From contig NZ_FMZO01000010.1 of the NCBI RefSeq assembly GCF_900101395.1, positions 62,001 through 126,000 on the forward strand: 64,000 nt of DNA, in the 5' to 3' direction. The position numbers and the translations under genes are program-made. Under the pieces are notes generated by a model. It worked only from the letters and a program-made list of their open reading frames with translations. It was not told the DNA's origin and searched no databases. The stretch comes from Niabella drilacis. Its GTDB lineage: Bacteria; Bacteroidota; Bacteroidia; Chitinophagales; Chitinophagaceae. Positions 27,093-56,757 of the stretch are shown here, one piece after another (position 1 is the first letter of the stretch; each line of letters starts with the position of its first letter).

Positions 27093-27120
27093 TCAGCTTT
27101 CAGCCTTCAGCTATCAGCAT
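27093..27120. repeat. Heptad array, word TCAGCnn, 4 units
   Basis: TCAGC begins at 27093, 27100, 27107 and 27114, an exact 7-bp period; the two bases after each TCAGC vary (tt, ct, ta, at). Confidence 0.8.
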
Positions 27121-27272
27121 TCCCCCATGGATTTACTCCCGGTATCTTTGCCAACGTAATACCTGGAGCATGACAACTTCCGGGAAACAAAGGGACCGGG
27201 GATACGGTTTATTGAAAACGCTCTTGTGTTAAGGACAGCCCAAAACACAGCGCACTGAAAGCTCCTATGTTT

Positions 27273-27300
27273 GTTTAAAGTTTAAGGGTTCACGTTAGAT
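27273..27300. repeat. Heptad array, word GTTTAAn, about 4 degenerate units
   Basis: GTTTAAA (27273), GTTTAAG (27280), GGTTCAC (27287) and GTTAGAT (27294) follow each other without gap in 7-bp register. The last two units are diverged. Confidence 0.55.
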
Positions 27301-27338
27301 CCGTGTTTCACTCCTCAAAGATCACAGGAGGGTTCCTG

Positions 27339-27388
27339 GTTTAACGTGGTGGAACATTGTTGAATGTAGTTTAATATTGTTTAAAGGA
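27339..27388. repeat. 10-bp-period array, five units
   Basis: Units begin with GT at 27339, 27349, 27359, 27369 and 27379; bases 5-6 of every unit are AA (GTTTAACGTG, GTGGAACATT, and so on). It is the only array in the window with period 10 instead of 7 and lies 18 bp past the recG stop codon. Confidence 0.75.
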
Positions 27389-27405
27389 CGCTAAAGGCTG
27401 AAGAC

Positions 27406-29466
27406 TCAGGAAATCTTGCTCCATGCCGTTTTCCCCTTCTGGGAACGCAGGAACTCTTTTAAAACCCCGTTTTCGGGCAGTGAAAGGTCCGGGTCTTCCT
27501 TTAAGAGCTGCTCACATTGCTGTTTTGCGGCTTCTACCATTGCCCGGTCGTTGACGATATCCACCAGCTTAAAGCTCAGCGCACCGCTTTGGCGGGTACC
27601 CTCTATTTCTCCCGGCCCCCGCAGCTCCAGGTCCTTTTCGGCAATTACAAAGCCGTTGCTGGTTGCCGTCATGATCTTCATCCGTTCCCGGGCCTCATTT
27701 CCCAGTTTTTTACCGGTAAGCAGGATACAGTAGCTTTTTTCAGCGCCTCTGCCCACCCGGCCCCGCAGCTGGTGCAGCTGCGACAACCCGAATTTTTCAG
27801 AACTTTCGATCAGCATTACCGATGCATTGGGCACATTTACACCTACCTCGATCACGGTGGTTGACACCATGATCTGGGTATCGTGCGTTACAAATCGCCG
27901 CATATTTTCATCCTTTTGATGGGCCGGCATTTTTCCATGCACCATGCTGATCCAGTACTGTGGCTCGGGAAAATAGGTTTTGATCGCCTCATAGCCCTGC
28001 ATCAGGTTCTCATAGTCGAGCTTTTCACTTTCCTCTATCAGGGGAAAGATGACGTACACCTGCCGGCCCAGGGCGATCTCGGCCTTCAGGAAATCCATCA
28101 CAAGACTGCGGTCATTCTCATACCGGTGCACCGTTTGGATCGGTTTCCTTCCCGGGGGCAATTCGTCAATCACGCTGTAATCAAGGTCGCCATAAGCGGT
28201 CATCGCCAGGGTCCGGGGAATGGGGGTAGCCGTCATCACCAGTACATGTGGCGGAATGGGTGCTTTATCCCAAAGCCTCGCCCGCTGCGCCACACCAAAG
28301 CGGTGCTGCTCATCGATGATCACCAGGCCCAGGTTTTGAAATCGAACCGGGTCCTCAATCACGGCGTGCGTACCAATAAGGATCTGGATTCCGCCGGCCA
28401 CCAGCCGCTCGAGCAGGGCCCGGCGTTCTTTGCCTTTTGTAGTGCCGGTTAAAATGGCTACTTCAACCGGCAGGGGTTCCAGTAACTCTCTGATCCCCTG
28501 GAAATGCTGACGAGCCAGGATCTCCGTTGGGGCCATCAGCACTGCCTGGTATCCATTGTCTACTGCCAGCAACATATTGAGTAAGGCCACGATGGTTTTA
28601 CCGCTGCCCACATCTCCCTGCAGCAGGCGGTTCATTTGTTTACCGCGGCCGGTATCGATGCGGATCTCCTTCAACACCCGCTTTTGTGCATTCGTCAGCT
28701 CAAAAGGCAGACAGTCTTTATAAAAGCGGTTAAAGAGCTCCCCCACTTTTTCAAATACCACCCCCTTTGAGAACCGGTGTCGCTCCCATCGCAGCAAATT
28801 CATCCGCAGCTGGGCAAAGAAGATCTCCTCAAACTTCAGCCGGCGCACTGCTGCTTCAAAACGGGCTGTGGTCTGGGGGAAATGGATGTTCCGAAAGGCT
28901 TCAAAACGGGGCATCAGCCGGAGGTTTTCCCGCATTTTCAGCGGCAGGTTTTCCGGCAGGTCGCGCTCCGTAAGATGAACGATGAGCGCGGCGGTCAGTT
29001 TCCCGATCTGCCGGCCGCCCAGGTTCTTTGCCTTAAGTTTTTCGGTGGAGGGATATACGGGTTCCAGGTAATCTTTCCCCTTTAGTTTTTCCGGGTCCCA
29101 GGCCTCCATTTCCGGATGTACCATCTGCGGTTTTCCCATAAAAAAGGAAACCTTCCCATAAACCAGGTAAGGCTGGCCGGGCTGGATCACTTTTTGGATG
29201 AGGCTGATGCTTTGAAACCATACCAGCTCTAAAACCCCTGTTTTATCTCTTACCTGCGCCGTAAGTCGCCGCCCCCGCCGTTCCCCGATCAGTTCAAAGG
29301 ATGAAAGGATGCCCGCTACCTGTATATATTCTTCCCCGGGGGCAATGGCACCAATGGGCGTCACCCTGGTTTTATCTACATGCCGGAAGGGGTAATGATG
29401 CAGCAGGTCATCAAATGTAAAAATACCCAGCTCCTTTTGCAGGATCTCTGCCCGCTGGGGCCCCAC
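27406..29466 (-). CDS. recG: ATP-dependent DNA helicase RecG
   Basis: A superfamily 2 helicase of 686 residues from the GTG at 29466. The N-terminal wedge/OB region (YIQVAGILSSFE) is followed by helicase motifs I (GDVGSGKT), II (DEQHRFG in place of DExH), III (VMTATPIPRT) and VI (QLRGRVGRG), then the RecG C-terminal TRG region. RecG remodels stalled forks and branched DNA. The coding frame continues 17 codons past the GTG with residues that look like the normal RecG start (NILSNPIGYLKGVGPQR), but no ATG, GTG or TTG occurs there, only ATT at 29517; true length may be about 703. Confidence 0.93.
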   Translation of the reverse strand: MGPQRAEILQKELGIFTFDDLLHHYPFRHVDKTRVTPIGAIAPGEEYIQVAGILSSFELIGERRGRRLTAQVRDKTGVLELVWFQSISLIQKVIQPGQPYLVYGKVSFFMGKPQMVHPEMEAWDPEKLKGKDYLEPVYPSTEKLKAKNLGGRQIGKLTAALIVHLTERDLPENLPLKMRENLRLMPRFEAFRNIHFPQTTARFEAAVRRLKFEEIFFAQLRMNLLRWERHRFSKGVVFEKVGELFNRFYKDCLPFELTNAQKRVLKEIRIDTGRGKQMNRLLQGDVGSGKTIVALLNMLLAVDNGYQAVLMAPTEILARQHFQGIRELLEPLPVEVAILTGTTKGKERRALLERLVAGGIQILIGTHAVIEDPVRFQNLGLVIIDEQHRFGVAQRARLWDKAPIPPHVLVMTATPIPRTLAMTAYGDLDYSVIDELPPGRKPIQTVHRYENDRSLVMDFLKAEIALGRQVYVIFPLIEESEKLDYENLMQGYEAIKTYFPEPQYWISMVHGKMPAHQKDENMRRFVTHDTQIMVSTTVIEVGVNVPNASVMLIESSEKFGLSQLHQLRGRVGRGAEKSYCILLTGKKLGNEARERMKIMTATSNGFVIAEKDLELRGPGEIEGTRQSGALSFKLVDIVNDRAMVEAAKQQCEQLLKEDPDLSLPENGVLKEFLRSQKGKTAWSKIS

Positions 29467-29656
29467 GCCTTTAAGATAGCCGATAGGGTTGGATAATATG
29501 TTATGACTTCCGGAAATACAACTGCTTTTGACAAAAATAAGGTGCTTTTGCTAACCGTAAAAAAACCGCACAGCATTACCAATGAGATCTGTCTGTACCA
29601 AAAAGAGGATTGCTCCTTTTTCCCCAACAAGGGAAATAATGACTGATCGTCATCCT

Positions 29657-30016
29657 ATGAAAAACACAGCTTATCCACACGATAGCCTTATTCGCAGCAT
29701 CCTATCCAATAAGAGCATTGCTACGGAATATTTTAAAAGCCATCTTCCGCCTTTTATCAGCAGGCACCTGAAAGGATTTATTATTTATACAGCAGGGCGG
29801 TCTTAAAAGAAGAAAAATATTAAATCCGTTTCCTTATCCGATAAGAAAAACAATTATGAACACCTTGGATATTTATATTGAAAAAGGGAGGCAAGAAGGC
29901 ATCGAAAAAGGCAAAGAACAGGTGAAGAACCAGCTGGCTACAGGGAAATTTTCTATCGCTGAATTGCCGGGTTTGCCGAGGCCTTTGTAAAAAAGCACAT
30001 ACGCCCTTCAAAATAA
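29657..30016 (+). pseudogene. Remnant of an Rpn family PD-(D/E)XK nuclease/transposase gene
   Basis: The 5' remnant (29657-29806) encodes an N-terminus typical of Rpn proteins: NTAYPHDSLIRSILSNKSIATEYFKSHLP. It then runs into a stop without any of the nuclease core. The 3' remnant (29856 onward) encodes the usual C-terminal tail, a Lys/Glu-rich IEKGRQEGIEKGKEQVKNQL helix and then FSIAE. A missing base there shifts the frame; read one frame over, the sequence continues as AGFAEAFVKKHIRPSK and stops at 30016. Full genes are near 900 bp, so most of the middle is deleted. Confidence 0.75.
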
Positions 30017-30050
30017 ATCAGGTTCCTGCAACACCGGCACGGGTGCTTTA

Positions 30051-31550
30051 TCACCGGAGGAATTTCCCGATCAAAGGCAGTCGCTGAAATTCTTTTCTTT
30101 CAACCCTGAGTATAAACAGGGTATACAGGAGCAGCAATACGGTAGCCGATCCATAGTTAAACCAGGACCCGGAAATTTTACCCACTATCCCCCGGTGTAT
30201 AAAAGATAAGACCACTGCAATAATGATATATGCACATAGTTTTTTCCATGCATAGGGTACCCGGTATTCTTTCTGTCCCCATATATAAGAGACCACCATC
30301 ATAGCACCATAGGCAAGGAAGGTGGCCCAGGCACAAGCCATATAACTGTAACGCGGAATAAATATGTAATTGATCAATAGTGTAACCAGGGCCCCGATAA
30401 GCGTAATATAAGCCCCCGCAATGGTTTTGTTTCCCAGTTTGTACCAGATACTAAGGTTATAATAAATACCCACGAACATATTGGCCAGTAGCAGGATGGG
30501 CACTACTTTTAATCCTACCCACATTTTAGGATTACGGATAAAATGTTTCCAGATATCAAGATAAAGCATCACTGCCAGAAACATGAGGCAAAGCGTGATC
30601 ACAAAAAATTTCATAACCCTTGCATAGATCCGGGTAGCATTTTCAGATGAAGACTGTTTAAAGAAAAAAGGTTCCGCTCCCATTCTGAATCCCTGTACTG
30701 CCAATGTGATCAGGATTGATAATTTATAGCAGGCCGAATAAATTCCCACCTGGGCCTTGGCCGCCTGCTCGGTGGCTGCCGGTGCCCACCAACCCAGCAT
30801 AATACGGTCAAAAGTTTCATTGACCATACCGGCAAACCCGGCCAGGATCAGCGGCATTCCATAAAGCAGCATTTTCCTCCACAATTCCTTATTGATATGA
30901 AGTTTAAACCCCAGAAATTCTTTTGAGAGCAGCAATAAGGTAATCATACTTTGTAAAAGATTGGCCACAAAAACATAACCAACCGCCCAATCTTTATTAT
31001 AGAATGTCCTGAGCCAGTGGTGCGGGTCTTTTTCCAGAATACCCGGCACCACACCCAGCAATACATACACTGAAATAAAGTTTACCAGGATGCCCAATAC
31101 CTTAATAGCAGCAAACTTTTTAGGCCGGCCATCTAATCTTAACTTAGAAAAAGGGATCGTGCTCAAAGCGTCGAAACCGATGATCAGTGCCGAAATGGTA
31201 ATATACTCCGGATGCTGCGCTACCTTAAGAAGCGATGCAATCGGGTGTCGAAAGAGAATGAGTGCCACTGAGAAAAAGACCGAAGTAAAAATGAGTGACA
31301 GACTGGATGTGTTGTAAACGTCATTCCGGTTATCCTGCTGTGCAAAACGGAAGAAAGCGGTCTCCATACCGTAGGTGAATATGATATTCATAAACGGGAT
31401 GAAGGAGTACACCATACTCATTTCCCCATAGTCTGCTATAGTTAGCAAACCGGTAAGCAATGGAGTGAGCAAGTAATTGATCAACTTCGCTACTATAGAA
31501 CTACCTCCGTACCAAAGTGTTTGTCCTGCCAGTTGTTTAATGCCGCTCAA
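30051..31550 (-). CDS. Oligosaccharide flippase (MOP superfamily), copy 1
   Basis: A 499-residue protein with about 12-14 transmembrane helices and the Wzx/polysaccharide-biosynthesis pattern (GIKQLAGQTLWYG start, AEPFFF near 290, YNLSIWYKLGNKT near 365). It should flip lipid-linked sugar units across the inner membrane. The start is TTG at 31550: an in-frame TAA lies 18 bp upstream and the next ATG would remove the first helix. It is a tandem paralogue of the gene at 31641-33149; both share the upstream sequence as well as the coding region. Confidence 0.87.
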   Translation of the reverse strand: MSGIKQLAGQTLWYGGSSIVAKLINYLLTPLLTGLLTIADYGEMSMVYSFIPFMNIIFTYGMETAFFRFAQQDNRNDVYNTSSLSLIFTSVFFSVALILFRHPIASLLKVAQHPEYITISALIIGFDALSTIPFSKLRLDGRPKKFAAIKVLGILVNFISVYVLLGVVPGILEKDPHHWLRTFYNKDWAVGYVFVANLLQSMITLLLLSKEFLGFKLHINKELWRKMLLYGMPLILAGFAGMVNETFDRIMLGWWAPAATEQAAKAQVGIYSACYKLSILITLAVQGFRMGAEPFFFKQSSSENATRIYARVMKFFVITLCLMFLAVMLYLDIWKHFIRNPKMWVGLKVVPILLLANMFVGIYYNLSIWYKLGNKTIAGAYITLIGALVTLLINYIFIPRYSYMACAWATFLAYGAMMVVSYIWGQKEYRVPYAWKKLCAYIIIAVVLSFIHRGIVGKISGSWFNYGSATVLLLLYTLFILRVERKEFQRLPLIGKFLR

Positions 31551-31640
31551 TGGATCTTCGTATTAGTTAACAAATGTACTGTTCTTCTGCTAAATGGCAG
31601 TACCTGTCGTTTTTTTCAGGATGCTGTGGGTGGTTATTTC

Positions 31641-33149
31641 CTAATGAAGGTATTTTCCGATAACGGGCAGCCTCCGGAATTCTTTCCGCTCTACTTTCAG
31701 GATAAACGCTGTAAACAGGATTAACAATACGGTTGCTGTACCCAGGTTAAACCAGTGATTATCCCACAGGCTAACCATGCCCCTGTGTACTGCATATAAC
31801 ACGATCACAATGACAAGGTATGCCAGTAGTTTTTTGCGTGCATACGGCACCGGGTAATATTTTTGTCCCAGCATATAACTAATGATCATCATAGACAAAT
31901 AACAGGCGAATGTTGCAATGGCGGCACCCAGGTAATGATATTTTGGAATGAGCCATACATTGAGAACAATGGTTATAACGGCCCCGATAATAGTAATGCC
32001 CGCTCCCGTCATATTCCTGTTGGTCAGTTTGTACCAGATACTGAGGTTATAATAAATCCCGAGGAAGATATTTCCTAACGCCAGTATGGGCACTACATTC
32101 AGCCCCTGTGCCCAGCTTTCGCGATGAATAGCCTTAAAGAACCAGCTTACCACATCAATATAAAGACTGATCGTCAAAAACATAAAGCAGCAGGCGATCA
32201 CAAAAAATTTCATGATCCGGGCATAGGTCCTTTGCGCATTTTCACCTTTTGACTGGTTAAAGAAAAAAGGCTCTGCGGCCATGCGGAATGCCTGGATCAT
32301 AATAGTGATCATGACCGCCAGCCGGAAGATATTGCCAAAAATACCCAGTTCATGCTTCGCCTGCGCCGGCGGCAGATTTACCACGTGCTGGTAAATGAGC
32401 CGGCTCATCATATCATTGACCATGCCCCCCATTCCCACAATGATCAGCGGCAATGCATACTTCATGACCTCCCGCCACAACTTTTTATCAAAATGAAAGC
32501 GGATCTGGAGCAACTCTTTTTGCAGCACCAGAAAGGTAACAATACTGCCCGCCAGGTTCCCGATAAGGTAATATCCAATGCCAATCTTTTCATTATAGAC
32601 TGCATGCAGCAAGCTGTGTGGATGACTATGGAGGTACTTTGGAATGACTGCCAGGAAAAGAATGACGATCACCATCATGGTAAACACTCCTGAAATACAG
32701 GCAAATGCATAACGTCTGGGCCTGTTTTCCTGTCGCAGTTTCGCAAAAGCAAGCGTAGCAATGGCATCAAAGAAAATAATGGCCGCCATGTAGTTGACAA
32801 ACCAGGGGCTCTCCTCCAGGCTGGCCCACACCACTATTTTATGCTTAAATAAAAATAAGAGCCCCGTAAATAAAACCGTGGAGGCCAGCAGCGAAATGGA
32901 GAGGGTATTGTACAGCTTCTTTCGATCCACCGTCTGCGAAAACCGGAAATAAGCCGTCTCCAGCCCATAAGTAAACAACACATTTAAAAAAGGAATGATG
33001 GCGTAGATCTGGGTCAGGTCCGCAGTGGAAGCCGGCTGGGCAAAAATTAACGGGAGCGCAAGATTCATGAGGTAGCCCAAAAACCTTTTTACTATAGTTG
33101 GTACCCCATACCATAACGTTTGTCCTGCCAGTTGTTTAATACCGCTCAA
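31641..33149 (-). CDS. Oligosaccharide flippase (MOP superfamily), copy 2
   Basis: A 502-residue paralogue of the neighbour, with the same start (SGIKQLAGQTLWYG), AEPFFF and YNLSIWYKL motifs and end (VERKEFRRLPVIGKYL). I place the start at TTG 33149, aligned with copy 1. The frame is open to an ATG at 33236, but the extra 29 residues correspond to DNA that in copy 1 is interrupted by a stop, so it is likely leader sequence. Function as for copy 1. No glycosyltransferases flank the pair, so the sugar carried is unknown. Confidence 0.86.
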   Translation of the reverse strand: MSGIKQLAGQTLWYGVPTIVKRFLGYLMNLALPLIFAQPASTADLTQIYAIIPFLNVLFTYGLETAYFRFSQTVDRKKLYNTLSISLLASTVLFTGLLFLFKHKIVVWASLEESPWFVNYMAAIIFFDAIATLAFAKLRQENRPRRYAFACISGVFTMMVIVILFLAVIPKYLHSHPHSLLHAVYNEKIGIGYYLIGNLAGSIVTFLVLQKELLQIRFHFDKKLWREVMKYALPLIIVGMGGMVNDMMSRLIYQHVVNLPPAQAKHELGIFGNIFRLAVMITIMIQAFRMAAEPFFFNQSKGENAQRTYARIMKFFVIACCFMFLTISLYIDVVSWFFKAIHRESWAQGLNVVPILALGNIFLGIYYNLSIWYKLTNRNMTGAGITIIGAVITIVLNVWLIPKYHYLGAAIATFACYLSMMIISYMLGQKYYPVPYARKKLLAYLVIVIVLYAVHRGMVSLWDNHWFNLGTATVLLILFTAFILKVERKEFRRLPVIGKYLH

Positions 33150-33258
33150 TGGATCTTTGTATTCGTTAATCAATGTGCTGTTCTGCTGCTCAACGATGTT
33201 GCCGGCATACGCGCCCCGTTCCCCCCAAAAAATCATATATCCCCATTACCGGGTAAAA

Positions 33259-33290
33259 TTTGGGGTTGGAATGACATCTTTTTACCTTCG
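33259..33290 (+). promoter_or_regulatory. Promoter of the 33323 gene
   Basis: TTTG at 33259-33262, a 20-base spacer and TACCTTCG at 33283-33290 fit the Bacteroidota -33/-7 arrangement (one mismatch in the -7). The start codon is 33 bases further on. Confidence 0.55.
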
Positions 33291-33322
33291 CAGCACATCA
33301 TTCTATAAAAATACAAATTAAC

Positions 33323-33928: not shown

Positions 33929-33932
33929 CCGG

Positions 33933-35090: not shown

Positions 35091-35176
35091 AGTTACAAGA
35101 ATATTTAATCAGTAGTCCCGGATCGTTTTCTATAAAGAAGCCCGGATCTGAAGAACCGGTATATCCTTAGCAAATA

Positions 35177-36712: not shown

Positions 36713-36886
36713 GATGCGCGAAGGTAATAAAATTGCAAATCACAAAAGCGGAGAATCCGGATAACCTTTGGTTAAATTGCGGGTTTGTCTGTTTAAAAAA
36801 CTATTTTTATAACGAGGAGCATTACGGGTACCCGGTACCCGCCGTATCCCGGACGAAAAACGATCAGAAAACTTAAAAAAGAGAAG

Positions 36887-37609
36887 ATGAAAAAATTATT
36901 TTTTATGGCTGTGGCTGTAGTTTTGCTCGCAGGTTCCTGCAATATCGTTGATCAGCAGCGCATTAAAGGAAACGGCAAGATCGTGAGCAAGACTTATGAG
37001 CTGAAGGACTTTAGCAGTATTGATATTGGTAATGCTTCGGTTATTTTCCTGAAACAGGACTCCGTCTTCAGCGTAAAGATCGAAACCGATGAAAATCTCT
37101 TCCAGTATATTATTGCAGCGGTTGAAGAAGGAGAACTGGATATTGATGAAAAAAACGATTATGACCTGAGCCCCAGCAGCGACATAAAGATCTATATTTC
37201 CATGCCGGTAGTTAAAAAAGCGGCCATTTCCGGGGCGTCCACGTTAAAAGGCGATAACAGGATCACACAGGACGAACCGCTTGCCCTGGATATCAGCGGC
37301 GCCTCCAACGGTACGCTCCAGGTAAAAGCCCCCACCGTACAAATGGATGTGAGCGGCGCATCTACCCTGAATATTTCGGGGGAGACCCGCGATATCCGGG
37401 GCGAAGCGAGCGGCGCCAGCACCATCCGCGGGTTTGACCTGAAGGCGGAGACCACCAGTATTGAAGCCAGCGGCGCCAGTACCGCCAATGTTTTTGCCAG
37501 CGTTCAGCTTACAGCCAATGCCAGTGGCGCTTCCAGCATCAAATACATGGGCAACCCTAAAGTAAACTCTTCAGCCAATGGCGCGGGCAGCGTAGGTAAG
37601 GCGGATTAA
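36887..37609 (+). CDS. GIN-domain (DUF2807) lipoprotein
   Basis: A 240-residue protein with a lipobox (LAGSC, Cys18) and a head GIN domain (DUF2807), a right-handed parallel beta solenoid. The fold shows as repeated SGAS/SGAST turns roughly every 17-22 residues (ISGASTL, ISGASNG, VSGASTL, ASGASTI, ASGASTA, ASGASSI). An FSSIDIGNASVIFLKQD strand opens the domain. It is likely in the periplasm or on the cell surface. Function is not known for most members; they often lie near LytTR or PspC genes, which is not the case here. Confidence 0.85.
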   Translation: MKKLFFMAVAVVLLAGSCNIVDQQRIKGNGKIVSKTYELKDFSSIDIGNASVIFLKQDSVFSVKIETDENLFQYIIAAVEEGELDIDEKNDYDLSPSSDIKIYISMPVVKKAAISGASTLKGDNRITQDEPLALDISGASNGTLQVKAPTVQMDVSGASTLNISGETRDIRGEASGASTIRGFDLKAETTSIEASGASTANVFASVQLTANASGASSIKYMGNPKVNSSANGAGSVGKAD

Positions 37610-37616
37610 AAACCGG

Positions 37617-37679
37617 TTTCAGATTTCAGGTTCCATGTTTCAGTCAGATCCTGAAACGTGAAACTTCAAACCTGGGACC
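37617..37679. repeat. Heptad array, TTTCAGn turning into TGAAACn, 9 units
   Basis: Starting 8 bases after the GIN gene stop, units follow each other in exact 7-bp register: TTTCAGA (37617), TTTCAGG (37624), TTTCAGT (37638), TGAAACG (37652), TGAAACT (37659) and others between. The second half carries the reverse-complement type of word of the first half, so the array is also an inverted repeat. Confidence 0.75.
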
Positions 37680-37686
37680 TGCACAC

Positions 37687-38241
37687 TTACTCCTTATCCA
37701 GCCGCTCCCATACCTCTGTAAGCGTCTTTTTTATCGCCGGAGGAAGCCTGTCAAAATTTTCAGAATACCTGCTTTGCCGGTATCCATCCGAAGCAGCCGC
37801 GCTGATCGTATAAAATGCAGCGCCTTTTGAAAATAACAGGTGCACCGACTGCTGCTGCTGGCCGGCATCTGTTAGGCTGTAAATAAAATATGCGTCTACA
37901 CTTCCATCACCGTCCCCGTCGAAAAAGCCCTTGCGGGCATCCCAGTTCATGATGATCCCGGTATGGGTCAGCATCGTGTCGGCCTTAACTACCCACACCC
38001 CTTTTTCTTTGGAATAACGCTGCAGGTACATGGTATCCGGCTGAATTCCTTTTGCCGCTTTTGAAAAAACAAATACGTTCTCCTCTTTCTCAGCCACCCG
38101 GACTTCATTTACATTAAGCAAACGGACGCCCCGGAATTTAAAATTGCCGTATGCTTCCGTGGCGCGGGTGATCACAGTTACCTGTGCATCCGCCGCTGCA
38201 ATTCCGGAGATCAGCGTAAGCAATAGTGCGATATACTTCAT
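37687..38241 (-). CDS. Secreted protein of unknown function
   Basis: A 184-residue protein with an N-terminal signal peptide (MKYIALLLTLISGIAAADAQ, cleavage near 19-20) and a beta-rich mature part. A DGDGDGSVDAYFIYSL stretch (about residue 108) looks like a Ca-binding dockerin/EF-type loop. No family recognised. Both of its flanks carry heptad arrays. Confidence 0.65.
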   Translation of the reverse strand: MKYIALLLTLISGIAAADAQVTVITRATEAYGNFKFRGVRLLNVNEVRVAEKEENVFVFSKAAKGIQPDTMYLQRYSKEKGVWVVKADTMLTHTGIIMNWDARKGFFDGDGDGSVDAYFIYSLTDAGQQQQSVHLLFSKGAAFYTISAAASDGYRQSRYSENFDRLPPAIKKTLTEVWERLDKE

Positions 38242-38293
38242 AGCTTATGGTTGCTTATTTATTATTTATCTGTTGCATCAGGCCGGCATAACA

Positions 38294-38342
38294 ATGGGTC
38301 ATGATCCATTTACCATGACCCATGACCCATTAACTATGAATA
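38294..38342. repeat. Heptad array, word ATGACCC, 7 units
   Basis: Seven consecutive 7-bp units each begin with AT: ATGGGTC, ATGATCC, then ATTTACC, ATGACCC (twice), ATTAACT and ATGAATA. It lies between guaB (3' end, 4 bp away) and the secreted-protein gene. Confidence 0.75.
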
Positions 38343-38346
38343 AGAA

Positions 38347-39843
38347 CTATTTCCGGCTGTAATTCGGCGCTTCCTTGGTCACATCCACATCATGCGGGTG
38401 ACTTTCATTCATACCTGCATTGGTGATCTTTACAAATTGTGCGTTCTGGAGGTCTTTGATGCTCTTTGCACCACAATACCCCATCCCGGCACGCAATCCG
38501 CCGGTATATTGATAGATCACTTCCTTTAAAGTGCCTTTATAAGCCACCCGGCCTTCGATACCTTCCGGTACAAACTTCTTCACATCATCTTCCGGGTCCT
38601 GGAAATAGCGATCGCTGCTGCCCTTGGCCATAGCCCCCAGCGAACCCATGCCGCGGTATGCTTTAAATTTACGTCCCTCAAAAATGATGGTTTCACCCGG
38701 ACTTTCTTCCGTACCGGCAAAAATGCTTCCCATCATGGCACAGTCTGCACCGGCTGCCAGCGCCTTTACAAGATCGCCGGTATACCGGATACCGCCATCT
38801 GCGATAATGGGTACTCCTTTCCTTTTCAACCCGGACGCGGCTTCCATGATCGCCGTCAGCTGCGGCATGCCCGCACCGGCCACGATACGCGTGGTACAGA
38901 TGGAGCCGGGACCAATACCCACTTTCACCGCATCGGCTCCTGCTTCTGCCATTGCCAGGGCCCCCGCGGCAGTACCTACATTACCCACGATAATATTCAG
39001 CTTCTTAAAATTCTTCTTAACGTTTTTCAATGCACTTAGCACCCCTTTCGTATGTCCGTGTGCACTGTCCAGTACCACCACATCCACACCTACCTGCTGC
39101 AGCGCATCGATCCGCTCTGTCACATCACCGGTGATGCCCACGCCGGCACCCACCAGCAGGCGACCAAAGGAATCTTTAATAGCATTGGGAAATGAAGTCA
39201 CCTGTAAAATATCACGGTAGGTGATCAGGCCGATCAACTTGCCCTGTTTGTCTACTACAGGCAGTTTTTCCACTTTATACTGGCGCAGAATGGTTTTTGC
39301 TTTTTTAAGGTCTGTTCCTTCCGGGGCTGTGATCAGGTTGGTACTGGTCATTACCTCGCTCACCTTACGGCTGGGGTTATCTTCAAAACGCAGATCCCGG
39401 TTTGTCAGGATCCCTTTCAGTTTTTTGTTTTTATCGATCACCGGGATGCCGCCGATCTTATTCTCCGCCATCAGCTGCAGGGCGTCTCCGATGGTAGCAT
39501 CTTCCAGCAGGGTGATGGGATCCAGGATCAGGCCGCTCTCACTCCGTTTTACCTTGCGCACCTGTTCCGCCTGCTTTTCGATGCTCATGTTCTTGTGCAG
39601 GATGCCCAGGCCGCCCTCGCGGGCAATAGCCGTAGCCAGCGCTGCTTCCGTAACCGTATCCATAGCGGCGGATAAGATGGGAATGTTTAAAGAAATATCT
39701 TTGGTGAGTTTGGTACGGATGTCCACCTCCCGTGGTAATACCTGGCTGAATGCCGGTACCAGTAATACGTCGTCAAATGTTAAGCCTTCAAAGGCGATCT
39801 TGGGATTATTTGCAGAAGCTGCAGAAGATTTTCTTGTTGCCAT
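38347..39843 (-). CDS. guaB: Inosine-5'-monophosphate dehydrogenase
   Basis: A 498-residue IMPDH from the ATG at 39843. A TIM barrel ([16 protein letters not shown] start) is interrupted by a two-CBS Bateman module at about 100-215. The catalytic loop [18 protein letters not shown] near 305 has the nucleophile Cys, followed by the flap ([20 protein letters not shown]). It makes XMP from IMP, the step before GuaA. A consensus -7 box (TACCTTTG, 39847-39854 on the minus strand) ends only 3 bases before the ATG, so the message may be leaderless. Confidence 0.97.
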
Positions 39844-45536: not shown

Positions 45537-46065
45537 TTTTGTATTTATTTCAATGCCGCAGAAGCACGGATACATAACCTCCTTCAAAGATTAATAGCAC
45601 CCGCCGGTGCCGCCTCGCAGGATACCTCGTCAACACGGGGCTCCATCCGGAGCCTGGTCTAAACAATAAAACGCTGCTATAAACACGGGGTGCCTACGGC
45701 GCCAGGGTTACCCTATCCTGGTTTCACCATTCTACTTTCAAACCGGTTCTTTCCTCTTTCTTAACAGAGTGCTGTTCCCCTTCGGGGAAGGCGGTTCAGA
45801 TGACTATCGAAATTCATTTACAACAAGTTCCCGCTGAATCATGCCGGGGTTAACCAGACGTATATGCGATGGTTCGGGGCCGGAACAAAGTTTAACGCCA
45901 GGTTCGATCTCATACCCGACAATCTATTGCCTGTTCAATAGCCGATTGAAACACGGAGTAGCACACGGACCTAACCTGGAACTTTGGACCTTAAACCGGG
46001 AACCCCTCTTAGGGAAACCATATTGACTGTCCACAGACTACTATTGACACTTGTCAGACCCCGTT
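45537..46065. other. Long spacer between dprA and the GNAT gene
   Basis: About 530 bp without a supported gene. It has small hairpins (GGCTCC/GGAGCC at 45639-45654, TTCCCC/GGGGAA at 45775-45789). At 45804-45938 a 45-codon frame without a start reads like real protein (YNKFPLNHAGVNQTYMRWFG) and may be a gene relic I cannot identify. A heptad array follows (45967-46056). Confidence 0.4.
45967..46056. repeat. Heptad arrays, ACCnnnn words then ATTGACn words
   Basis: From 45967 six units keep a 7-bp register with ACC or ACT at the start of most (ACCTGGA 45974, ACTTTGG 45981, ACCTTAA 45988, ACCGGGA 45995). After a 14-bp gap, ATTGACT (46022) and ATTGACA (46043) stand exactly 21 bp (three words) apart. 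Located at the 3' end of the GNAT gene. Confidence 0.6.
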
Positions 46066-46491: not shown

Positions 46492-46583
46492 TTCAATGAT
46501 TTTTTACAAAGGAACATAAAAAACCAAAATGAGCACAGATACAGTTTCTTAAAAAAAGATGGACACAATTCAATATTAAAATG

Positions 46584-47837: not shown

Positions 47838-48017
47838 ATACTTCTTTACCAGGTTGTGAATGCGCAGCGCAGGAGCATGTTTGTTGCATTGCGTCCGCAT
47901 GCGCTTATTGAAAATTATGGCCGGGAGCCCGGCATATACCATCTATATAAGGAGAAGCCCCGGAGGGCTTCATCCTTTATTGAACAGTGTATAAACACAT
48001 AGTTAAGGGGCTGCCGT

Positions 48018-48707: not shown

Positions 48708-48712
48708 AAGAT

Positions 48713-50056: not shown

Positions 50057-50072
50057 ATATCTTAATTTTTTA

Positions 50073-50080
50073 CAAAGGTA
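50073..50080 (-). promoter_or_regulatory. -7 box for the amidohydrolase-ankyrin operon
   Basis: Minus-strand TACCTTTG, a full TAnnTTTG match, 16 bases before the ATG at 50056. Confidence 0.5.
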
Positions 50081-50131
50081 GCATCCCCCCGGGGCCAACC
50101 GATGGAGGATTTATGCCATAACTTGTAAAAT

Positions 50132-50980: not shown

Positions 50981-51008
50981 GCCAGAAAGTTACAACATTT
51001 CGGGAAGG

Positions 51009-51911: not shown

Positions 51912-51972
51912 GATACCTATAAAGTATTGATTAATGATAAAAATAGTATTTTCAGGGTATGGATTGGTATTT

Positions 51973-51980
51973 TACTTTTG
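51973..51980 (+). promoter_or_regulatory. -7 box for the methyltransferase gene
   Basis: TACTTTTG matches TAnnTTTG, 16 bases before the ATG at 51997, in the 85-bp divergent region shared with the LysR gene. Confidence 0.5.
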
Positions 51981-51996
51981 GAGCACAAAAGGAACT

Positions 51997-52713
51997 ATGG
52001 AACAAAAATCAACCTTAAAAGAAATTGAAGAACGCTTCGATAAAGATGTGGAGCGCTTCTCTAACCTGGAAACGGGGCAGCAGACCACGCTGGATGCCGC
52101 CTTTAACATGGAGCTGATCACTGACGGCATTGCCGCCGCTATGCCCCATCCCAAAAAAATACTGGACATCGGCTGCGGGGCGGGCAACTACCCTGTTAAG
52201 CTCTTATCAAAAATAACATCCAACCCGGATATAACCCTGGTAGATCTGAGCCGGCCCATGCTGGATAAAGCGGTGGAGCGGATACAGCCGCTCACAACCG
52301 GGGCCATTACTACCCACCAGGGCGACTTCCGTACCGCACCGCTCAAAGAGAACAGCTACGATGCCATTATCGCTACAGCGGTGCTCCATCACCTGCGGGA
52401 GGATGCCGACTGGGAAACGGCTTTTACAAAATGCTTTAAACTGTTACAACCAGGCGGCAGCTTCTGGATCTTTGACCTCGTGGCCCAGGACCACCCGGCA
52501 ATGCAGCAGTTACTTTTTACAAAACACTACGGGCATTACCTCAGCAGCCTGAAAGATGAGACTTACAGGGACCATGTATTTGCGTACATCGAAAAAGAGG
52601 ATAGCCCCAGGAGCGTTCTCTACCAAACCAGCCTGCTACGTAAAGTGGGCTTTAAAACCGTGGAACTGCTGCATAAGAACCTTTGTTTCGCTTCTTTTGC
52701 AGCTTTCAAATAA
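51997..52713 (+). CDS. SAM-dependent class I methyltransferase
   Basis: A 238-residue protein from the ATG at 51997. The frame is open to 51934, but that part overlaps the divergent promoter. Motif I KKILDIGCGAGNYPVKLL (about residue 48) binds SAM, with LVDLSRPMLDKA (acidic end of strand 2), a GDFRTAP region and ATAVLHHLREDADWE. It is a methyltransferase of the UbiE/type 11 kind. The substrate is not known; it is probably controlled by the divergent LysR protein. Confidence 0.88.
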   Translation: MEQKSTLKEIEERFDKDVERFSNLETGQQTTLDAAFNMELITDGIAAAMPHPKKILDIGCGAGNYPVKLLSKITSNPDITLVDLSRPMLDKAVERIQPLTTGAITTHQGDFRTAPLKENSYDAIIATAVLHHLREDADWETAFTKCFKLLQPGGSFWIFDLVAQDHPAMQQLLFTKHYGHYLSSLKDETYRDHVFAYIEKEDSPRSVLYQTSLLRKVGFKTVELLHKNLCFASFAAFK

Positions 52714-52961
52714 CCGGTAGTGCAGGTAAAGAGCAGCCAGTCGCGCCATATTGCTGCTGCCGGCCTTAGCACTATTGCAAAGCTGACCCCGGGATGGCCG
52801 CCCGGGCGGCCCTGATATCCGCCGGAACAGTTGGCCGTCTTGAAAATCTTATCGAAATTTGCCAGGCAGGAATAATACCCTGCGTTTGCAGATGCCCCGC
52901 AACTATACTGTGATATAACACCCGGGGGCGCTGCAGTAAGGCATCTTAAACAAAAGAAACA

Positions 52962-54335
52962 ATGGCAGGACTGATCAATCATCTGAACGCGATACGCAGC
53001 TTTTTCAATACCGGGGGCACCCGCCCCTCCGATTTCAGGAAACAGCAATTACTGCGGCTGAAGGAAAGCATTCTGAAATATGAAGAAGCGCTGAGCAACG
53101 CATTATTCAGCGATCTGCATAAAAGCAAAGAAGAAGTGTGGATCACCGAAACCGGTATGGTCCTTTCCGAGATCAACGCCTGCATCAAATCGCTGGACGA
53201 GTGGATGGCCCCCCAGCCGGTTCCTACCAATTTTGTAAATATACCCGGCAAAAGTTACCTGTTACCGGAGCCATTGGGAGTGGTGCTGATCATTGCTCCC
53301 TGGAATTACCCGTTTCAACTGTTGTTTATGCCGCTGATCGGTGCCATTGCTGCCGGCAATTGTGTGGTCCTCAAACCCAGTGAACTAACACCGGCTACCG
53401 AAAAAATAATGGGGCAGATCATTGCGGAAACTTTTGCCCCCAATTATATATTATATGCACCAGGAGAAGGCGCTGTATTGATCCCGGAGCTGATGGACGC
53501 TTTCCGGTACGATCATGTCTTTTACACGGGCAGTACCGCTGTAGGAAGGATCATTTATCAAAAAGCAGCAGCACAATTAACCCCGGCTACGCTTGAGCTG
53601 GGAGGCAAAAGCCCCTGCATCATAACCCGGAACGCATCGCTGAAGGTTGCCGCCAAACGGATCGTCAATATTAAGTTTTCCAATGCAGGGCAAATGTGCA
53701 TTACCCCGGATTACCTGCTGGTGCACCACTCCGTTAAGGAGGCGCTGATCCGGCAGCTGAAAGCCACTATACTGAAATTTTACGGGGAGCACCCGATTAC
53801 CAGTTATGATTACGGGCGCATTGTCAACAAGAAGCACTTTAACCGCCTGCGCAATTTAATGGAAGGGCAAACGATCCTTCACGGGGGCGAGCACAACGAA
53901 GAACAGCTGTTTATTGCACCTACATTGCTGGATGCACCTTCCATGGAAGCTCCTGTAATGAAGGAGGAGATATTTGGGCCGCTGCTCCCGGTGATCGGTT
54001 ATGGAAGTGATGAAGAAGCCCTGGCCCGGATCCGGCAAAACGAGAACCCGCTGGCCCTGTATGTTTTTACCAGCGATAAAAAAGAGGCCGATCACTGGCT
54101 GCAGCAGGTACCTTTCGGCGGAGGTTGCGTAAATACCGCAGCCATGCATTACCTGAATAAAAATCTGCCCTTCGGCGGAAGGGGGAACAGTGGTATCGGC
54201 CGGTATCATGGCCGGTTTTCCTTTGAAACCTTCAGCCATATCAAAGGCATTTTAAAAGCCCAAACCTGGCCCGATATTCCCCTGGCCTACCCTACGCTAA
54301 AGGGTAAATTAAAGACGTTAAAAAAGGTCATATAA
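52962..54335 (+). CDS. Aldehyde dehydrogenase (NAD(P)-dependent, class 3 type)
   Basis: A 457-residue ALDH. The cofactor and core motifs are PWNYPFQLLFMPLIGAIAAGNCVVLKPSE, then FYTGSTAVGRIIY. The catalytic general base Glu is in LELGGKSPC near residue 211 and the nucleophile Cys is in NAGQMCITPDY near 245; PFGGRGNSGIGRYHG is near the C-terminus. The short N-terminus and the membrane-proximal C-terminal tail resemble the ALDH3/coniferyl or fatty aldehyde group. It oxidises aldehydes to acids. The 248-bp spacer upstream has no clear promoter. Confidence 0.92.
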   Translation: MAGLINHLNAIRSFFNTGGTRPSDFRKQQLLRLKESILKYEEALSNALFSDLHKSKEEVWITETGMVLSEINACIKSLDEWMAPQPVPTNFVNIPGKSYLLPEPLGVVLIIAPWNYPFQLLFMPLIGAIAAGNCVVLKPSELTPATEKIMGQIIAETFAPNYILYAPGEGAVLIPELMDAFRYDHVFYTGSTAVGRIIYQKAAAQLTPATLELGGKSPCIITRNASLKVAAKRIVNIKFSNAGQMCITPDYLLVHHSVKEALIRQLKATILKFYGEHPITSYDYGRIVNKKHFNRLRNLMEGQTILHGGEHNEEQLFIAPTLLDAPSMEAPVMKEEIFGPLLPVIGYGSDEEALARIRQNENPLALYVFTSDKKEADHWLQQVPFGGGCVNTAAMHYLNKNLPFGGRGNSGIGRYHGRFSFETFSHIKGILKAQTWPDIPLAYPTLKGKLKTLKKVI

Positions 54336-54348
54336 ACCTGTCAGGTTT
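54334..54348. terminator. Small bidirectional hairpin between two convergent genes
   Basis: AAACC-TGTCA-GGTTT, a 5-bp stem with a 5-base loop, partly overlaps the ALDH stop and lies 8 bp from the end of the YegP gene on the other strand. A weak terminator for both directions. Confidence 0.4.
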
Positions 54349-54355
54349 TAAAGAT

Positions 54356-54688
54356 CTAACTTTCCGGCTCAACAACTTCCGCGTCCGGGGCATTCTTCTT
54401 CACAGACTCGATGCCGTTTTCGCGGGCCGCCTCCGATTCGTAAAGCTCACTTTTGCCGATGATCTGACCATTGCCGGCCTTCAGGCTAAAAAAGGGCTTA
54501 CCATTAGAAGATGTTTTCCGGTCGTAATGCGCGTCATCAGCAGCATTTTTCTTTACAGACTCAATGCCGTTGTCACAGGCGGCTCTTGTGGTGTACCCTT
54601 CACTGGTAAGGATCACCTGTCCGTTGCCAGCCTTCAGGTTAAATTGGAATTCGCCGTTGGTCCTTTTGGAAACTACAAATTTTCCCAT
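54356..54688 (-). CDS. YegP-like protein, two DUF1508 repeats
   Basis: A 110-residue protein made of two copies of the DUF1508/YegP repeat: NGEFQFNLKAGNGQVILTSEGYTTRAACDNGIESVKKNA and, near residue 62, NGKPFFSLKAGNGQIIGKSELYESEAARENGIESVKKNA. Such small basic, soluble domains are widespread; the biochemical role is not settled. It is the last gene of the minus-strand group with the LytTR/kinase pair, 34 bp downstream of the response regulator. Confidence 0.92.
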   Translation of the reverse strand: MGKFVVSKRTNGEFQFNLKAGNGQVILTSEGYTTRAACDNGIESVKKNAADDAHYDRKTSSNGKPFFSLKAGNGQIIGKSELYESEAARENGIESVKKNAPDAEVVEPES

Positions 54689-54722
54689 AGTTGATTTTCT
54701 TTTAAAGATAGGGAATTTAAGG

Positions 54723-55457
54723 CTACAACCCCAACACCGCTTTTAGTTTGCCGTAACCGTTCCGGCTTACATTGATCTTGGTTCCGTTTTTCAGGATTGC
54801 CACATGCCCATCCTTTTCATAAGGATCAATACGGGTGATCTCCTGTATATTCACGATATAGGACCGGTGGCTCCGCACAAACAGGTCCTGCGGTAAAAAG
54901 TTCTCAAAAAAGCTCATGGTCTTGTTTTTCAGGAAATAGCCGTCTTTGGTAAAGATCTTTACAAAGTCGTCGGCCGCTTCCAGGTACAGCACTTCCTGCA
55001 CCGGGATGATCTTGATCTTACTCCCGTTCTTTACCACGATCCGGTTATTGGAATTGGGCAGCTGCACATCATTCAGCAACTCCTGTGTATTGGCTACATT
55101 CGCTTTATGCTGGGATAAGAATTTATTCACGGCCTTATCAAAACGCTCCTGGTCAAACGGTTTTAGCAAATAGTCTACGGCATGCGCTTCAAATGCCTTT
55201 ATGGCGTATTCGTCAAATGCCGTGGCAAAAACAACTGCCGGAGGTTCTTCAATCAGCTCCAGCATTTCAAAACCGCTGATCTTGGGCATCTGGATATCCA
55301 GGAAGATCAGGTCCGGCTTATGCTCCTGGATGGCCTTCATTCCCTCAAACCCGTCGCCGCACTCCGCCACTAATTCCAGTTGCGGGAACTTTTGAAGATA
55401 TTCCTTTACCATACTTCTTGCCAGAAACTCGTCGTCAATGATAATTACTTTGCTCAT
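54723..55457 (-). CDS. LytTR-type response regulator
   Basis: A 244-residue regulator. The receiver domain (1-120) has Asp8/Asp9 and phosphoacceptor Asp54 (LIFLDIQMPK); Lys near 104 closes the site. The LytTR DNA-binding domain (about 140-244) has KIKIIPVQEVLYLEAADDFVKIFTKDG and FLPQDLFVRSHRSYIVN. It overlaps the histidine kinase gene by 4 bp, so the two are made together and surely act as partners. Target genes in Bacteroidota are mostly envelope or exopolysaccharide genes. Confidence 0.94.
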   Translation of the reverse strand: MSKVIIIDDEFLARSMVKEYLQKFPQLELVAECGDGFEGMKAIQEHKPDLIFLDIQMPKISGFEMLELIEEPPAVVFATAFDEYAIKAFEAHAVDYLLKPFDQERFDKAVNKFLSQHKANVANTQELLNDVQLPNSNNRIVVKNGSKIKIIPVQEVLYLEAADDFVKIFTKDGYFLKNKTMSFFENFLPQDLFVRSHRSYIVNIQEITRIDPYEKDGHVAILKNGTKINVSRNGYGKLKAVLGL

Positions 55458-56497
55458 GCCTGTTGCGGTATTTTAACGATTGTGTAATAAATATTATCCT
55501 GTGTTTTTGTTGATAACAGGTCATTCCTTCCATACAAAAGATATAACCTTCTTTTAATGGAACTCAGTCCGAAACCTGTACCCGTTTTTGGCAGGGAGGT
55601 TTCCGGATCAAAAGGGTTGGTGACCACAATGCACAATTCATTCTGCTCCCGGGTACTCTCAATGGTGATCAGCGTTTCCCCAATGGTATCATACAGTCCG
55701 AACTTGATCGCATTCTCCACCACCGGCTGAAGCAATAACGTAGGCAGCAGCAGGTCTTTCGTTTCTTCGGGAATCACAATGGAAGTCATCAGCCGGTTCC
55801 CAAAACGTACTTTTTCAATTTCCAAATATAAGTTCAAATAATTGATCTCCTCCGTAAGGGAGATCATTTGCGATTCTTCTTTTTTTAATGTCCCCCGGAG
55901 AAAATCGGATAACTGCTGCACCATTTTACGTGCCTGCTGGGGATTTAACCCGATGAGGGCGTTAATGGAATTGAGGCTGTTAAACAAAAAATGAGGTTGC
56001 AGCTGCTGGCGCAGTTTAAACAGCTCCGCTTCGCGGGACAGGCGGTCTGCATCTGTACGCCGCTGCTCTACCTTCTGCCGCTCTACCCAGTTGTACCACA
56101 AAATAGCGGCGATCGTTAAAATGGTGAGTACGAGGAAGGCGACCACGGCCCGGATCACCAATGACCGGTTCAGGAACGAAAGATAGGCTTCGGAATCATC
56201 CAGGAATATTTTAAGAAAGGTATTTGAAATAAACAGCCACAAACCGGTCATGATCAAACAGGAAGCAATAACGCTGCTGTACTGGTAGCTGGAAGGAAGG
56301 TAGTATTTTGTAACATTAAGCATTAACAGCCCCGCCAGCAGCAACAGGAAGTTGCTCACCAGGCTGTCGGTGATCACAATATAAAGCGGCAGTTCAAAAT
56401 AATTCCGCAAAAAAAAGGCCTGCACATTCACCAGCACTACCCAGCCAATGATGAGGGAGATCAGGAATCTTTTTGCTGTTAACGGAGATGCAGACAC
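55454..56497 (-). CDS. LytS/YehU-type sensor histidine kinase
   Basis: A 347-residue membrane kinase starting at GTG 56497. It has four transmembrane helices (about residues 10-30, 40-62, 77-95 and 115-136), then the His_kinase domain with the phosphoacceptor His169 (LQQLQPHFLFNSLNSINALI), and an HATPase_c domain ending LPKTGTGFGLSSIKRRLYLLYG. There is no extracellular sensor, so it probably senses the membrane itself. It is coupled to the LytTR gene, with a heptad array between it and the LiaF-like gene upstream. Confidence 0.92.
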   Translation of the reverse strand: MSASPLTAKRFLISLIIGWVVLVNVQAFFLRNYFELPLYIVITDSLVSNFLLLLAGLLMLNVTKYYLPSSYQYSSVIASCLIMTGLWLFISNTFLKIFLDDSEAYLSFLNRSLVIRAVVAFLVLTILTIAAILWYNWVERQKVEQRRTDADRLSREAELFKLRQQLQPHFLFNSLNSINALIGLNPQQARKMVQQLSDFLRGTLKKEESQMISLTEEINYLNLYLEIEKVRFGNRLMTSIVIPEETKDLLLPTLLLQPVVENAIKFGLYDTIGETLITIESTREQNELCIVVTNPFDPETSLPKTGTGFGLSSIKRRLYLLYGRNDLLSTKTQDNIYYTIVKIPQQA

Positions 56498-56512
56498 TTG
56501 GGTTATTCGGGA

Positions 56513-56592
56513 TTTCAGGTTTGAGATTGGGAAGTTAAGATTTCAGTTCCGATAGCTACCGGGGTCAGGTTCGAGATTGAAAACTTCAGATG
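56513..56592. repeat. Heptad array, TTTCAGn words, first block
   Basis: TTTCAGG (56513), TTTGAGA (56520) and TTTCAGT (56541) with two more units between are in 7-bp register over five words. After a break, TCAGGTT (56565), CGAGATT, GAAAACT and TCAGATG continue in 7-bp steps. This block starts 16 bases upstream of the kinase start. Confidence 0.6.
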
Positions 56593-56645
56593 AGACCGGA
56601 ACATTTGGCAACAACAGCCACCAGCACCATTTTTCACTATTATTC

Positions 56646-56757
56646 TTCTCACAATTATCATTTCACTATTGCCTTCTCGCTACGATCACTTCACTTTTCA
56701 CCATTGCCTATTCACCACGATCACTTCACTTTTCACTATTGCCTATTCACTATTGCC
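56646..56757. repeat. Longest heptad array, 16 words
   Basis: Sixteen consecutive 7-bp words without any slip in register. A few word types recur: TTTTCAC (56695, 56730), ACTTCAC (56688, 56723), TATTGCC (56667, 56737, 56751), TATTCAC (56709, 56744) and others such as ATTTCAC, TTCTCAC and CACGATC. A 35-bp higher-order repeat (five words) is visible: the words at 56688-56708 recur at 56723-56743 with one change. It ends 3 bp from the 3' end of the LiaF-like gene. Confidence 0.85.

What the first reader, a model, noticed from the sequence alone, without database searches (positions are those of the whole stretch)
27093..56757. Family of 7-bp-phased 'word' arrays in at least six intergenic spacers
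Spacers at 27093, 27273, 37617, 38294, 45967, 56513 and 56646 consist of consecutive 7-bp words in strict register. Each site has its own word (TCAGCnn, GTTTAAn, TTTCAGn, ATGACCC, ACCnnnn, ATTGACn, TATTCAC), so what is conserved is the period, not the sequence. Most arrays touch the 3' end of a gene. Three words equal 21 bp, two helical turns, so phasing on DNA is possible; a copying or slippage mechanism with a fixed 7-nt step is another. Cyanobacteria have heptameric short tandem repeats, but those use one sequence; I know of no named Bacteroidota family with changing words.
Basis: partly seen in the sequence, partly recalled or inferred. Interest (0 to 1): 0.82.

Follow-up and report, generated by a model that had tools for sequence, protein, structure and literature searches.

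The report
Seven-base word hairpins after genes
Gaps between genes in this bacterium and its relatives hold short stretches built from consecutive seven-base words; in the best-studied relatives these prove to be copied families of about four words that sit right behind genes and often pair up as hairpins, so they look like a little-known kind of small repeat rather than random stutter.

Summary
The core observation holds. In Niabella (window genome G000) spacer DNA has a sharp identity peak at lags 7, 14 and 21; coding DNA shows only its codon period, E. coli none. The seven named sites lie in five spacers, four of them significant. Two sites are hairpins: 37615-37679 nearly fills the gap between two convergent stop codons with two arms of four words; 38292-38332 is conserved behind guaB in five Niabella species.

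Slippage alone is not enough. In a relative (G006, Chitinophagaceae 26-R-25) array size clusters at four words (29 of 43), and one 30-mer family occurs 305 times, 76 in its sister, in 3 of 147 family genomes, reversed control 0. Its arms lie in inverted pairs and mostly abut stop codons. So there the words mark dispersed, lineage-specific repeat families. That the window's arrays are older or locally expanded members of this class is inferred: two of them used as queries had almost no second copy in G000. Heptamer repeats are in print; my searches found no description of such hairpin families.

The parts
27093..27122 (+). array of four words TCAGCnn, about 70 bp upstream of the FAD-oxidase start (gene on - strand)
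   Evidence: lag-7 identity 0.78, lag 14 0.88; TRF periods 7 and 14; 27098-27107 predicted to pair with 27394-27403 at the far end of the spacer
27273..27296 (+). short GTTTAAn array, weak
   Evidence: score 8.0, lag-7 identity 0.71 over 24 nt
37615..37643 (+). 5' arm of hairpin, four words (GTTTCAG type), behind the stop codon (37607-37609) of the DUF2807 gene
   Evidence: lag-7 array 37613-37642 score 12.2; fold; spacer p=0.003
37651..37679 (+). 3' arm of the same hairpin, four words (CTGAAAC type), next to the stop codon of the convergent gene 37687-38241
   Evidence: lag-7 array 37648-37681 score 12.6; fold
38292..38332 (-). 17-bp stem-loop behind guaB (IMP dehydrogenase) holding the ATGACCC words
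   Evidence: 96.5% of 85 cells paired in five Niabella species; two pairs changed on both sides, one a clear U-A to C-G, the other at the end of the stem; 42 of 500 shuffles did as well
45973..46004 (+). weak ACCnnnn array downstream of the GNAT gene
   Evidence: score 8.8; not significant over all lags
56513..56590 (+). degenerate word array upstream of the histidine kinase gene, weak
   Evidence: lag-7 identity 0.44
56636..56757 (+). CTATTCA/CTATTGC/CACTTCA word array with a 35-nt (5 x 7) higher-order period, at the 3' end of the LiaF-like gene
   Evidence: TRF 35-nt period at 56661-56750, score 138; lag 7 0.45, lag 14 0.55

Best explanation
The arrays belong to a class of small dispersed intergenic repeats whose unit is a run of about four consecutive 7-nt (sometimes 8-nt) words, roughly 28-34 nt. 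Units are copied as wholes to many places, usually directly behind a gene's stop codon, and often stand as inverted pairs that fold into long hairpins. Families amplify in single lineages, so genomes differ in vocabulary; at a given spacer the array tends to persist while its words and length turn over. Shown in relatives G006 and G004: hundreds (305) and 76 copies of one 30-mer family, word number near four, inverted pairing, abutment on stop codons. Shown in Niabella: the 7-nt period in spacers, words shared between loci, lineage-specific amplification of one block in G314, hairpins at two window sites. Inferred: that the window's arrays are older or locally expanded members of the same class, and that the copying agent is a mobilisation or gene-conversion process acting on the hairpin. 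Local tandem expansion (slippage) probably adds words on top.
For: 30-mer TTGAAARx3-TTGAAAATG: 305 in G006, 76 in G004, reversed control 0; 3 of 147 family genomes hold it (305, 76 and 8). Of neighbours within 200 nt, 20 of 20 among the 74 listed G006 hits and 9 of 9 among the 76 G004 hits face each other. 49 arms: 38 of four words, 11 of three, none longer; 36 outer ends face a gene 3' end, 30 of them within 12 nt; 10 face a 5' end, none within 12 nt; 3 fall inside a called frame. G006 lag-7 scores are bimodal, 9,4,0,1,14,11,9,5 over bins from 6/8/10/12/14/17/20/25. Hairpin arms of >=21 nt in G006 (16) and G003 (7) have lag-7 identity 0.56 and 0.66 against 0.29 and 0.27 outside. A 261-nt array block present in G314, absent from the same spacer of G001 and G315, has 55 matches in G314 (40 of 120 candidates scored) against 5, 7 and 4 in G000, G315, G001. 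Spacers of one genome share +7-repeated 5-mers more than under label shuffles: 290 of 1420 pairs against 208.9 (sd 19.3, maximum 274 of 500 shuffles). TTCAGNN x 3: 35 in G001, 38 in G002, 22 in G000, reversed control 0 in all three. Array presence between G001 and G315: 11 both, 5 one only, 68 neither, of 84 spacers.
Against: In G000 two window arrays used as queries found one weak second copy each. Direct array-to-array similarity within G000 is only slightly above the reversed control (7.5 against 6.8) and in several genomes not above it. In Niabella array length is broader (18 of 50 G000 arrays have four words, tail to 12 or more), and C29 holds a near-perfect 16-word and an imperfect 19-word array, which look like slippage. 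The four-word mode outside G006 and G003 may partly reflect the detection threshold; in the pattern-chosen G006/G004 loci a fifth word on the inner side was excluded by the pattern. Long 7-periodic stems are few in Niabella (2 of 7 stems >=20 bp in G000, 2 of 3 in three relatives). No mobilising enzyme was found: Y1 transposases occur in 13 of 15 genomes, G047 (one lag-7 array in 80 kb) among them, and not in G012 or G013; G006's best match has stops inside, a weaker one (E 1.4e-6) is open. No clear empty site with target duplication was seen.
Confidence: 0.58

Rival explanations
1. Polymerase slippage with a preferred 7-nt step, as proposed for bacterial heptanucleotide repeats; each locus makes its own array, words drift by point mutation, and fold-back template switching mirrors words into hairpins.
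For: Near-perfect 16-word TCTGATG array and 19-word TTCAGCn-type array in G000; gaps of exactly 7 nt stand out in alignments of array spacers (at 6, 7, 8 nt: 7, 17, 9; in non-array spacers 18, 18, 6; species pairs not independent, and aligners favour 7-nt gaps in arrays); the proposal is reported in MacGregor 2015 and Rehm 2015 (passages).
Against: Two-copy 7-nt duplications outside arrays are near chance; no graded length series in G006; the same 30-mer family at hundreds of places.
Confidence: 0.25
2. They are selected 3'-end RNA hairpins (terminators, mRNA stabilisers or processing sites) that are functional at each gene.
For: guaB stem-loop conserved with a compensatory change; array spacers between genes in ++ order fold better than array-free ones (mean z -2.8, n=44, against -1.2, n=286); abutment on gene 3' ends.
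Against: No intrinsic-terminator pattern at 37500-38500; by eye, arrays lie beside separate terminator-like hairpins in G006 and G003 and beyond a conserved one in G314; arrays occur between divergent genes as often in G000 (9 of 100 spacers, against 32 of 324 codirectional and 8 of 87 convergent); '--' array spacers fold no better than array-free ones (-1.26, n=12, against -1.28, n=97). Selection on RNA does not explain a 7-nt period.
Confidence: 0.2
3. RAYT-mobilised REPIN-like elements.
For: Inverted doublets forming hairpins, extragenic, multi-copy, as described for REPINs (abstract and passages); GTAG-type palindromes lie next to some arms in G006.
Against: Arms are tandem words, not short palindromes; Y1 transposase presence does not follow array abundance in the 15 genomes searched; arrays beside 3 of 14 Y1 loci and no GTAG palindrome detected beside any.
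Confidence: 0.1
4. Binding sites for a protein that polymerises on contiguous 7-bp boxes, as the RHH protein omega of pSM19035 does.
For: Omega binds contiguous 7-bp repeats and its partner ATPase is fully activated only with at least four (passages), matching the four-word arms.
Against: Many different words per genome, 8-nt arrays as well, and abutment on stop codons rather than promoters in G006/G004.
Confidence: 0.06

Closest known systems
Bacterial heptanucleotide tandem repeats (Xanthomonas GGGAATC, Nostoc GGGGA(C/T)T, Beggiatoaceae/Cyanobacteria/Bacteroidetes TAACTGA)
   Same: 7-nt period, intergenic, many loci; Xanthomonas ones lie closer to the ORF on their 5' side, 28 nt on average (passages)
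   Different: each study follows one word (other heptamers are mentioned in Calothrix, Gramella and A. sublithincola); here many words per genome, arms of about four words, inverted pairing, abutment on stop codons
REPINs / REP elements
   Same: multi-copy extragenic inverted doublets with hairpins (passages)
   Different: arms are about 30-nt tandem words, not short GTAG palindromes; no RAYT link found
Small dispersed repeats (SDR) of Nostoc, Elhai 2008
   Same: very small mobile repeats, recalled as often embedded in heptameric repeats
   Different: 21-27 nt units as recalled; the paper is not held, only its reference and mentions were seen
Eukaryotic foldback elements (recalled)
   Same: inverted arms built of tandem subrepeats
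   Different: far larger; no homology implied
pSM19035 parS heptads bound by omega
   Same: contiguous 7-bp repeats, four or more (passages)
   Different: one consensus WATCACW, at plasmid promoters

Membership tests
heptanucleotide tandem repeats | contiguous intergenic 7-nt units | tested here: met
heptanucleotide tandem repeats | a single consensus word per described family | tested here: not met
   many words in G000, G006, G003; single sub-families do have one consensus
slippage-made microsatellites | graded copy numbers with a pool of two-copy precursors | tested here: not met
   (clear in G006; Niabella less clear)
REPIN | extragenic inverted doublets forming hairpins, multi-copy | tested here: met
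   G006 and G004 only
REPIN | short palindromic GTAG-type arms | tested here: not met
   arm sequence TTGAAAATTGAAAG...
REPIN | associated RAYT | tested here: inconclusive
intrinsic terminator | G+C-rich stem followed by T run | tested here: not met
   0 found at window 37500-38500; other sites not scanned
intrinsic terminator | RNA 3' ends at the hairpin | not testable with these tools
   needs RNA data
omega/RHH heptad operator | WATCACW consensus | tested here: not met
   not the consensus of the words listed
MITE / foldback transposon | shared core between the inverted ends | tested here: not met
   eight cores printed, 34-130 nt, different sequences, some with terminator-like hairpins
MITE / foldback transposon | target-site duplication at an empty site | tested here: inconclusive
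   orthologous spacers mostly too diverged
Nostoc SDR | 21-27 nt mobile unit with common fold | not tested
   paper not held

The most novel reading that the evidence does not exclude
A new class of minimal mobile element anchored on stop codons: about four 7- or 8-nt words, most of which carry a stop triplet on the gene's sense strand. Because 7 and 8 are not multiples of 3, successive words place a stop in every reading frame, so the unit can land at or just inside a gene end and supply the stop itself; any stop-bearing word will do, which is why words change and the period does not. For: in 8 of 30 arms abutting a gene end the first word's own TGA is the stop and in 13 the stop directly precedes it; near 3' ends arrays with more sense than antisense stops outnumber the reverse in G006 14:3, G003 7:0, other genera 10:6, with 11-12 sense stops per 100 nt. 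Against: three Niabella relatives 4:10 and G000 3:3; periods 4, 5, 10 and 11 would also do but are much rarer.
Probability: 0.18. Interest if true: 0.82.

Novelty: new variant of a known kind. Interest (0 to 1): 0.62.

Why it matters
Heptamer excess in bacterial intergenic DNA has been put down to polymerase slippage. Here the arrays of one lineage are discrete, copied, oriented units tied to stop codons, so the excess may have another source, and one that can be tested. It also offers a tractable system (305 copies of one 30-mer family in G006, 76 in its sister) for asking how repeats of about 30 nt with no enzyme of their own spread, and it warns that 3' UTRs in these bacteria can hold large hairpins that the annotation libraries used here (Rfam) do not name.

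Tried and rejected
Helical phasing: no support, and 8-nt word arrays exist. Rfam at gathering thresholds: only a tRNA in the window. RAYT link: not supported. Terminator pattern: none at 37500-38500. A first test of whether the strongest array of a spacer has its reverse complement elsewhere in that spacer was mixed: G006 9 of 17, G003 5 of 8, G011 2 of 4, C29 5 of 18, G000 window 1 of 3, G001 1 of 7, 80 loci 20 of 63, against 0-33% for other spacers of the same set; stem-based tests followed. Array-to-array similarity within genomes was weak except in small sets such as L056. Structure prediction was not used, no protein being at issue. The statement that I found no prior description of such hairpin families rests on ten searches of an open-licence library (67 was for omega); Elhai 2008 and Mrazek 2007 were not read.
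Full report
What was asked.

Origin. The window is G000:C28:62001-126000 of a 6.1-Mb genome in 45 contigs. Its guaB protein is 97% identical to that of Niabella pedocola and of a Niabella MAG. Some genomes appear under two handles, judged by size, coordinates and counts: G001=G318, G002=G314, G006=G347, G004=G439. G006 holds L057 (Chitinophagaceae bacterium 26-R-25) and G004 holds L055 (Pinibacter soli).

Observation. Spacers were taken between longest open frames of at least 80 aa. Over 740 kb of contig C29 (77,483 spacer bases) identity at lag 7 has z=10.7, lag 14 z=7.2, lag 21 z=6.2; arrays scoring at least 10 number 59, 39 and 26 at these lags, 14 at 28, and 2-20 at the other lags from 4 to 30. 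Lags 2 and 3 are also raised (z 8.1 and 14.2). Coding DNA shows the codon period and no peak at 7 or 14. E. coli (200 kb) has no lag-7 excess. Five further genomes sampled at 80 kb each gave lag-7 z of 3.9 (G184), 3.4 (G224), 2.1 (G180), 2.0 (G117) and -0.8 (G047). The pattern TTCAGNN x 3 is in 59 of 296 genomes of the phylum sample; in some others only the reversed control word occurs as an array. Named sites were tested one by one: the seven lie in five spacers, 45967 is not secure, 27273 and 56513 are weak, the rest hold.

What the strong sites are. Spacer 37610-37686 lies between two convergent stop codons and folds as arms 37615-37643 and 37651-37679 around a 7-nt loop, four words an arm. 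Its counterparts in four other Niabella genomes are 199, 346, 605 and 1427 nt long (the last probably holds extra genes, not tested); array segments were printed in three and similar words can be read in the fourth, which was not scored; words differ between species. The ATGACCC site is a stem-loop (38292-38332) behind guaB: in five Niabella species 96.5% of 85 cells pair, two pairs changed on both sides, eight of 17 pairs never vary; 42 of 500 shuffles did as well, so covariation is modest.

The wider group. 80 guaB-linked loci, nearly all titled Chitinophagaceae or wider Bacteroidota groups, give lag 7 z=22.0 and 106 arrays; density varies greatly by genome and many loci have none. In G006 and G003 hairpin arms of 21 nt or more (16 and 7) have lag-7 identity 0.56 and 0.66 against 0.29 and 0.27 outside; G000 had five such arms (0.37) and G001 none. 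Word changes are mirrored in the two arms, for example at G006 97558-97722 of the joined stretch.

Not simple slippage. Exact two-copy 7-nt duplications outside arrays are near chance: G000 6 against 4.2 shuffled, G001 1 against 1.8, G006 1 against 0.4, 80 loci 11 against 5.4, the last a mild excess. In G006 the score histogram is nearly empty where short arrays should be (0 and 1 in the bins 10-14), 27 of 40 arrays are 28-35 nt long, and a second class has 8-nt words, 8 of 12 at 32-39 nt. By whole words G006 has 29 of 43 arrays at four, G003 8 of 18, G000 18 of 50 with a long tail; the threshold may shape that mode in G000.

Copied units. The G006 guaB spacer block gave 101 matches in G006 and 106 in G004, with only 40 of 421 and 40 of 311 candidates scored, and recurrent ends at query 40-72. 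The 30-mer behind this occurs 305 and 76 times, control 0, and in 3 of 147 family genomes, the third with 8. Among 74 listed G006 hits, 20 of 20 neighbour pairs within 200 nt face each other; among all 76 G004 hits, 9 of 9. Cores between arms differ and some hold terminator-like hairpins. Of 49 arms, 36 outer ends face a gene 3' end, 30 within 12 nt, 13 directly after the stop, 8 with the stop formed by the first word; 10 face 5' ends, none within 12 nt; 3 lie inside a called frame. Most of these loci were chosen by a pattern that ends the fourth word in TG, so runs longer on the inner side were excluded there; longer runs on the outer side were allowed and none was seen. In Niabella, a 261-nt block in G314 has 55 matches there (40 of 120 candidates scored) and 4-7 in each of three relatives. 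Against this, two G000 window arrays have almost no second copy in G000, so no young family is shown there.

Position and stops. Arrays start within 6 nt of a gene 3' end at 15 of 22 array-bearing ends in G006 (1.6 expected), 15 of 34 in other genera (4.6), 4 of 13 in G003 (1.3), 13 of 38 in three Niabella (6.4) and 5 of 24 in G000 (2.6); gene 5' ends show a weaker excess (for example 4 of 22, 1.2 expected, in G006; 6 of 26, 2.5 expected, in G000). Near 3' ends, arrays with more sense than antisense stop codons outnumber the reverse outside Niabella (31 to 9) but not in Niabella (7 to 13).

Turnover. Between G001 and G315 (median 92.8% protein identity) array presence agrees in 79 of 84 spacers (11 both, 68 neither), while words and lengths change.

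Reading. Best supported is a class of small dispersed repeats made of about four words, amplified in Pinibacter/26-R-25 and in G314, older or locally expanded in G000. The step from relatives to the window is inference. The copying agent is unknown. Prior art on heptamers is from passages of PMC4679880, PMC4692102 and PMC9499535, REPINs from passages of PMC3116915, GTAG repeats from passages of PMC3733652.

Noticed in passing
G000 C29 227312-227836, 321130-321493, 475676-476003, 601455-601920 (in L012, L017, L173, L180): Four copies of a MITE-like element, 163 nt in the two where both ends were located, with roughly 40-nt inverted ends starting AGAGCCTGTTTAAA.
   Followed up: partly
L057 5107-5233; G006 C1 182462-182593 and 186714-186905: GTAG-type palindrome GTAGGGGCGAATCGCATTCGCCC directly after heptad arms; 4 exact matches, both strands, in about 220 kb.
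   Followed up: partly
G006 and G011 spacers: A second class of arrays with 8-nt words (TTCAGTTA, GAACAGAT), also about four words and often inverted.
   Followed up: partly
L164 2053-2657 (G314): A unit of about 150 nt repeated three times in tandem inside the spacer orthologous to 37610-37686.
   Followed up: no
G000 C29 190375-190486 (L010): One TTTGATG followed by 15 identical TCTGATG words between divergent genes, a candidate for true slippage.
   Followed up: no
L089: Record titled 'Williamsia sp.' MAG (an actinobacterial name, recalled) carries a guaB 74% identical to Niabella's; probably mislabelled.
   Followed up: no
window 27356-27384: Short 10-nt-period stretch (ATTGTTTAAT) in the same spacer as the 27093 array.
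   Followed up: no
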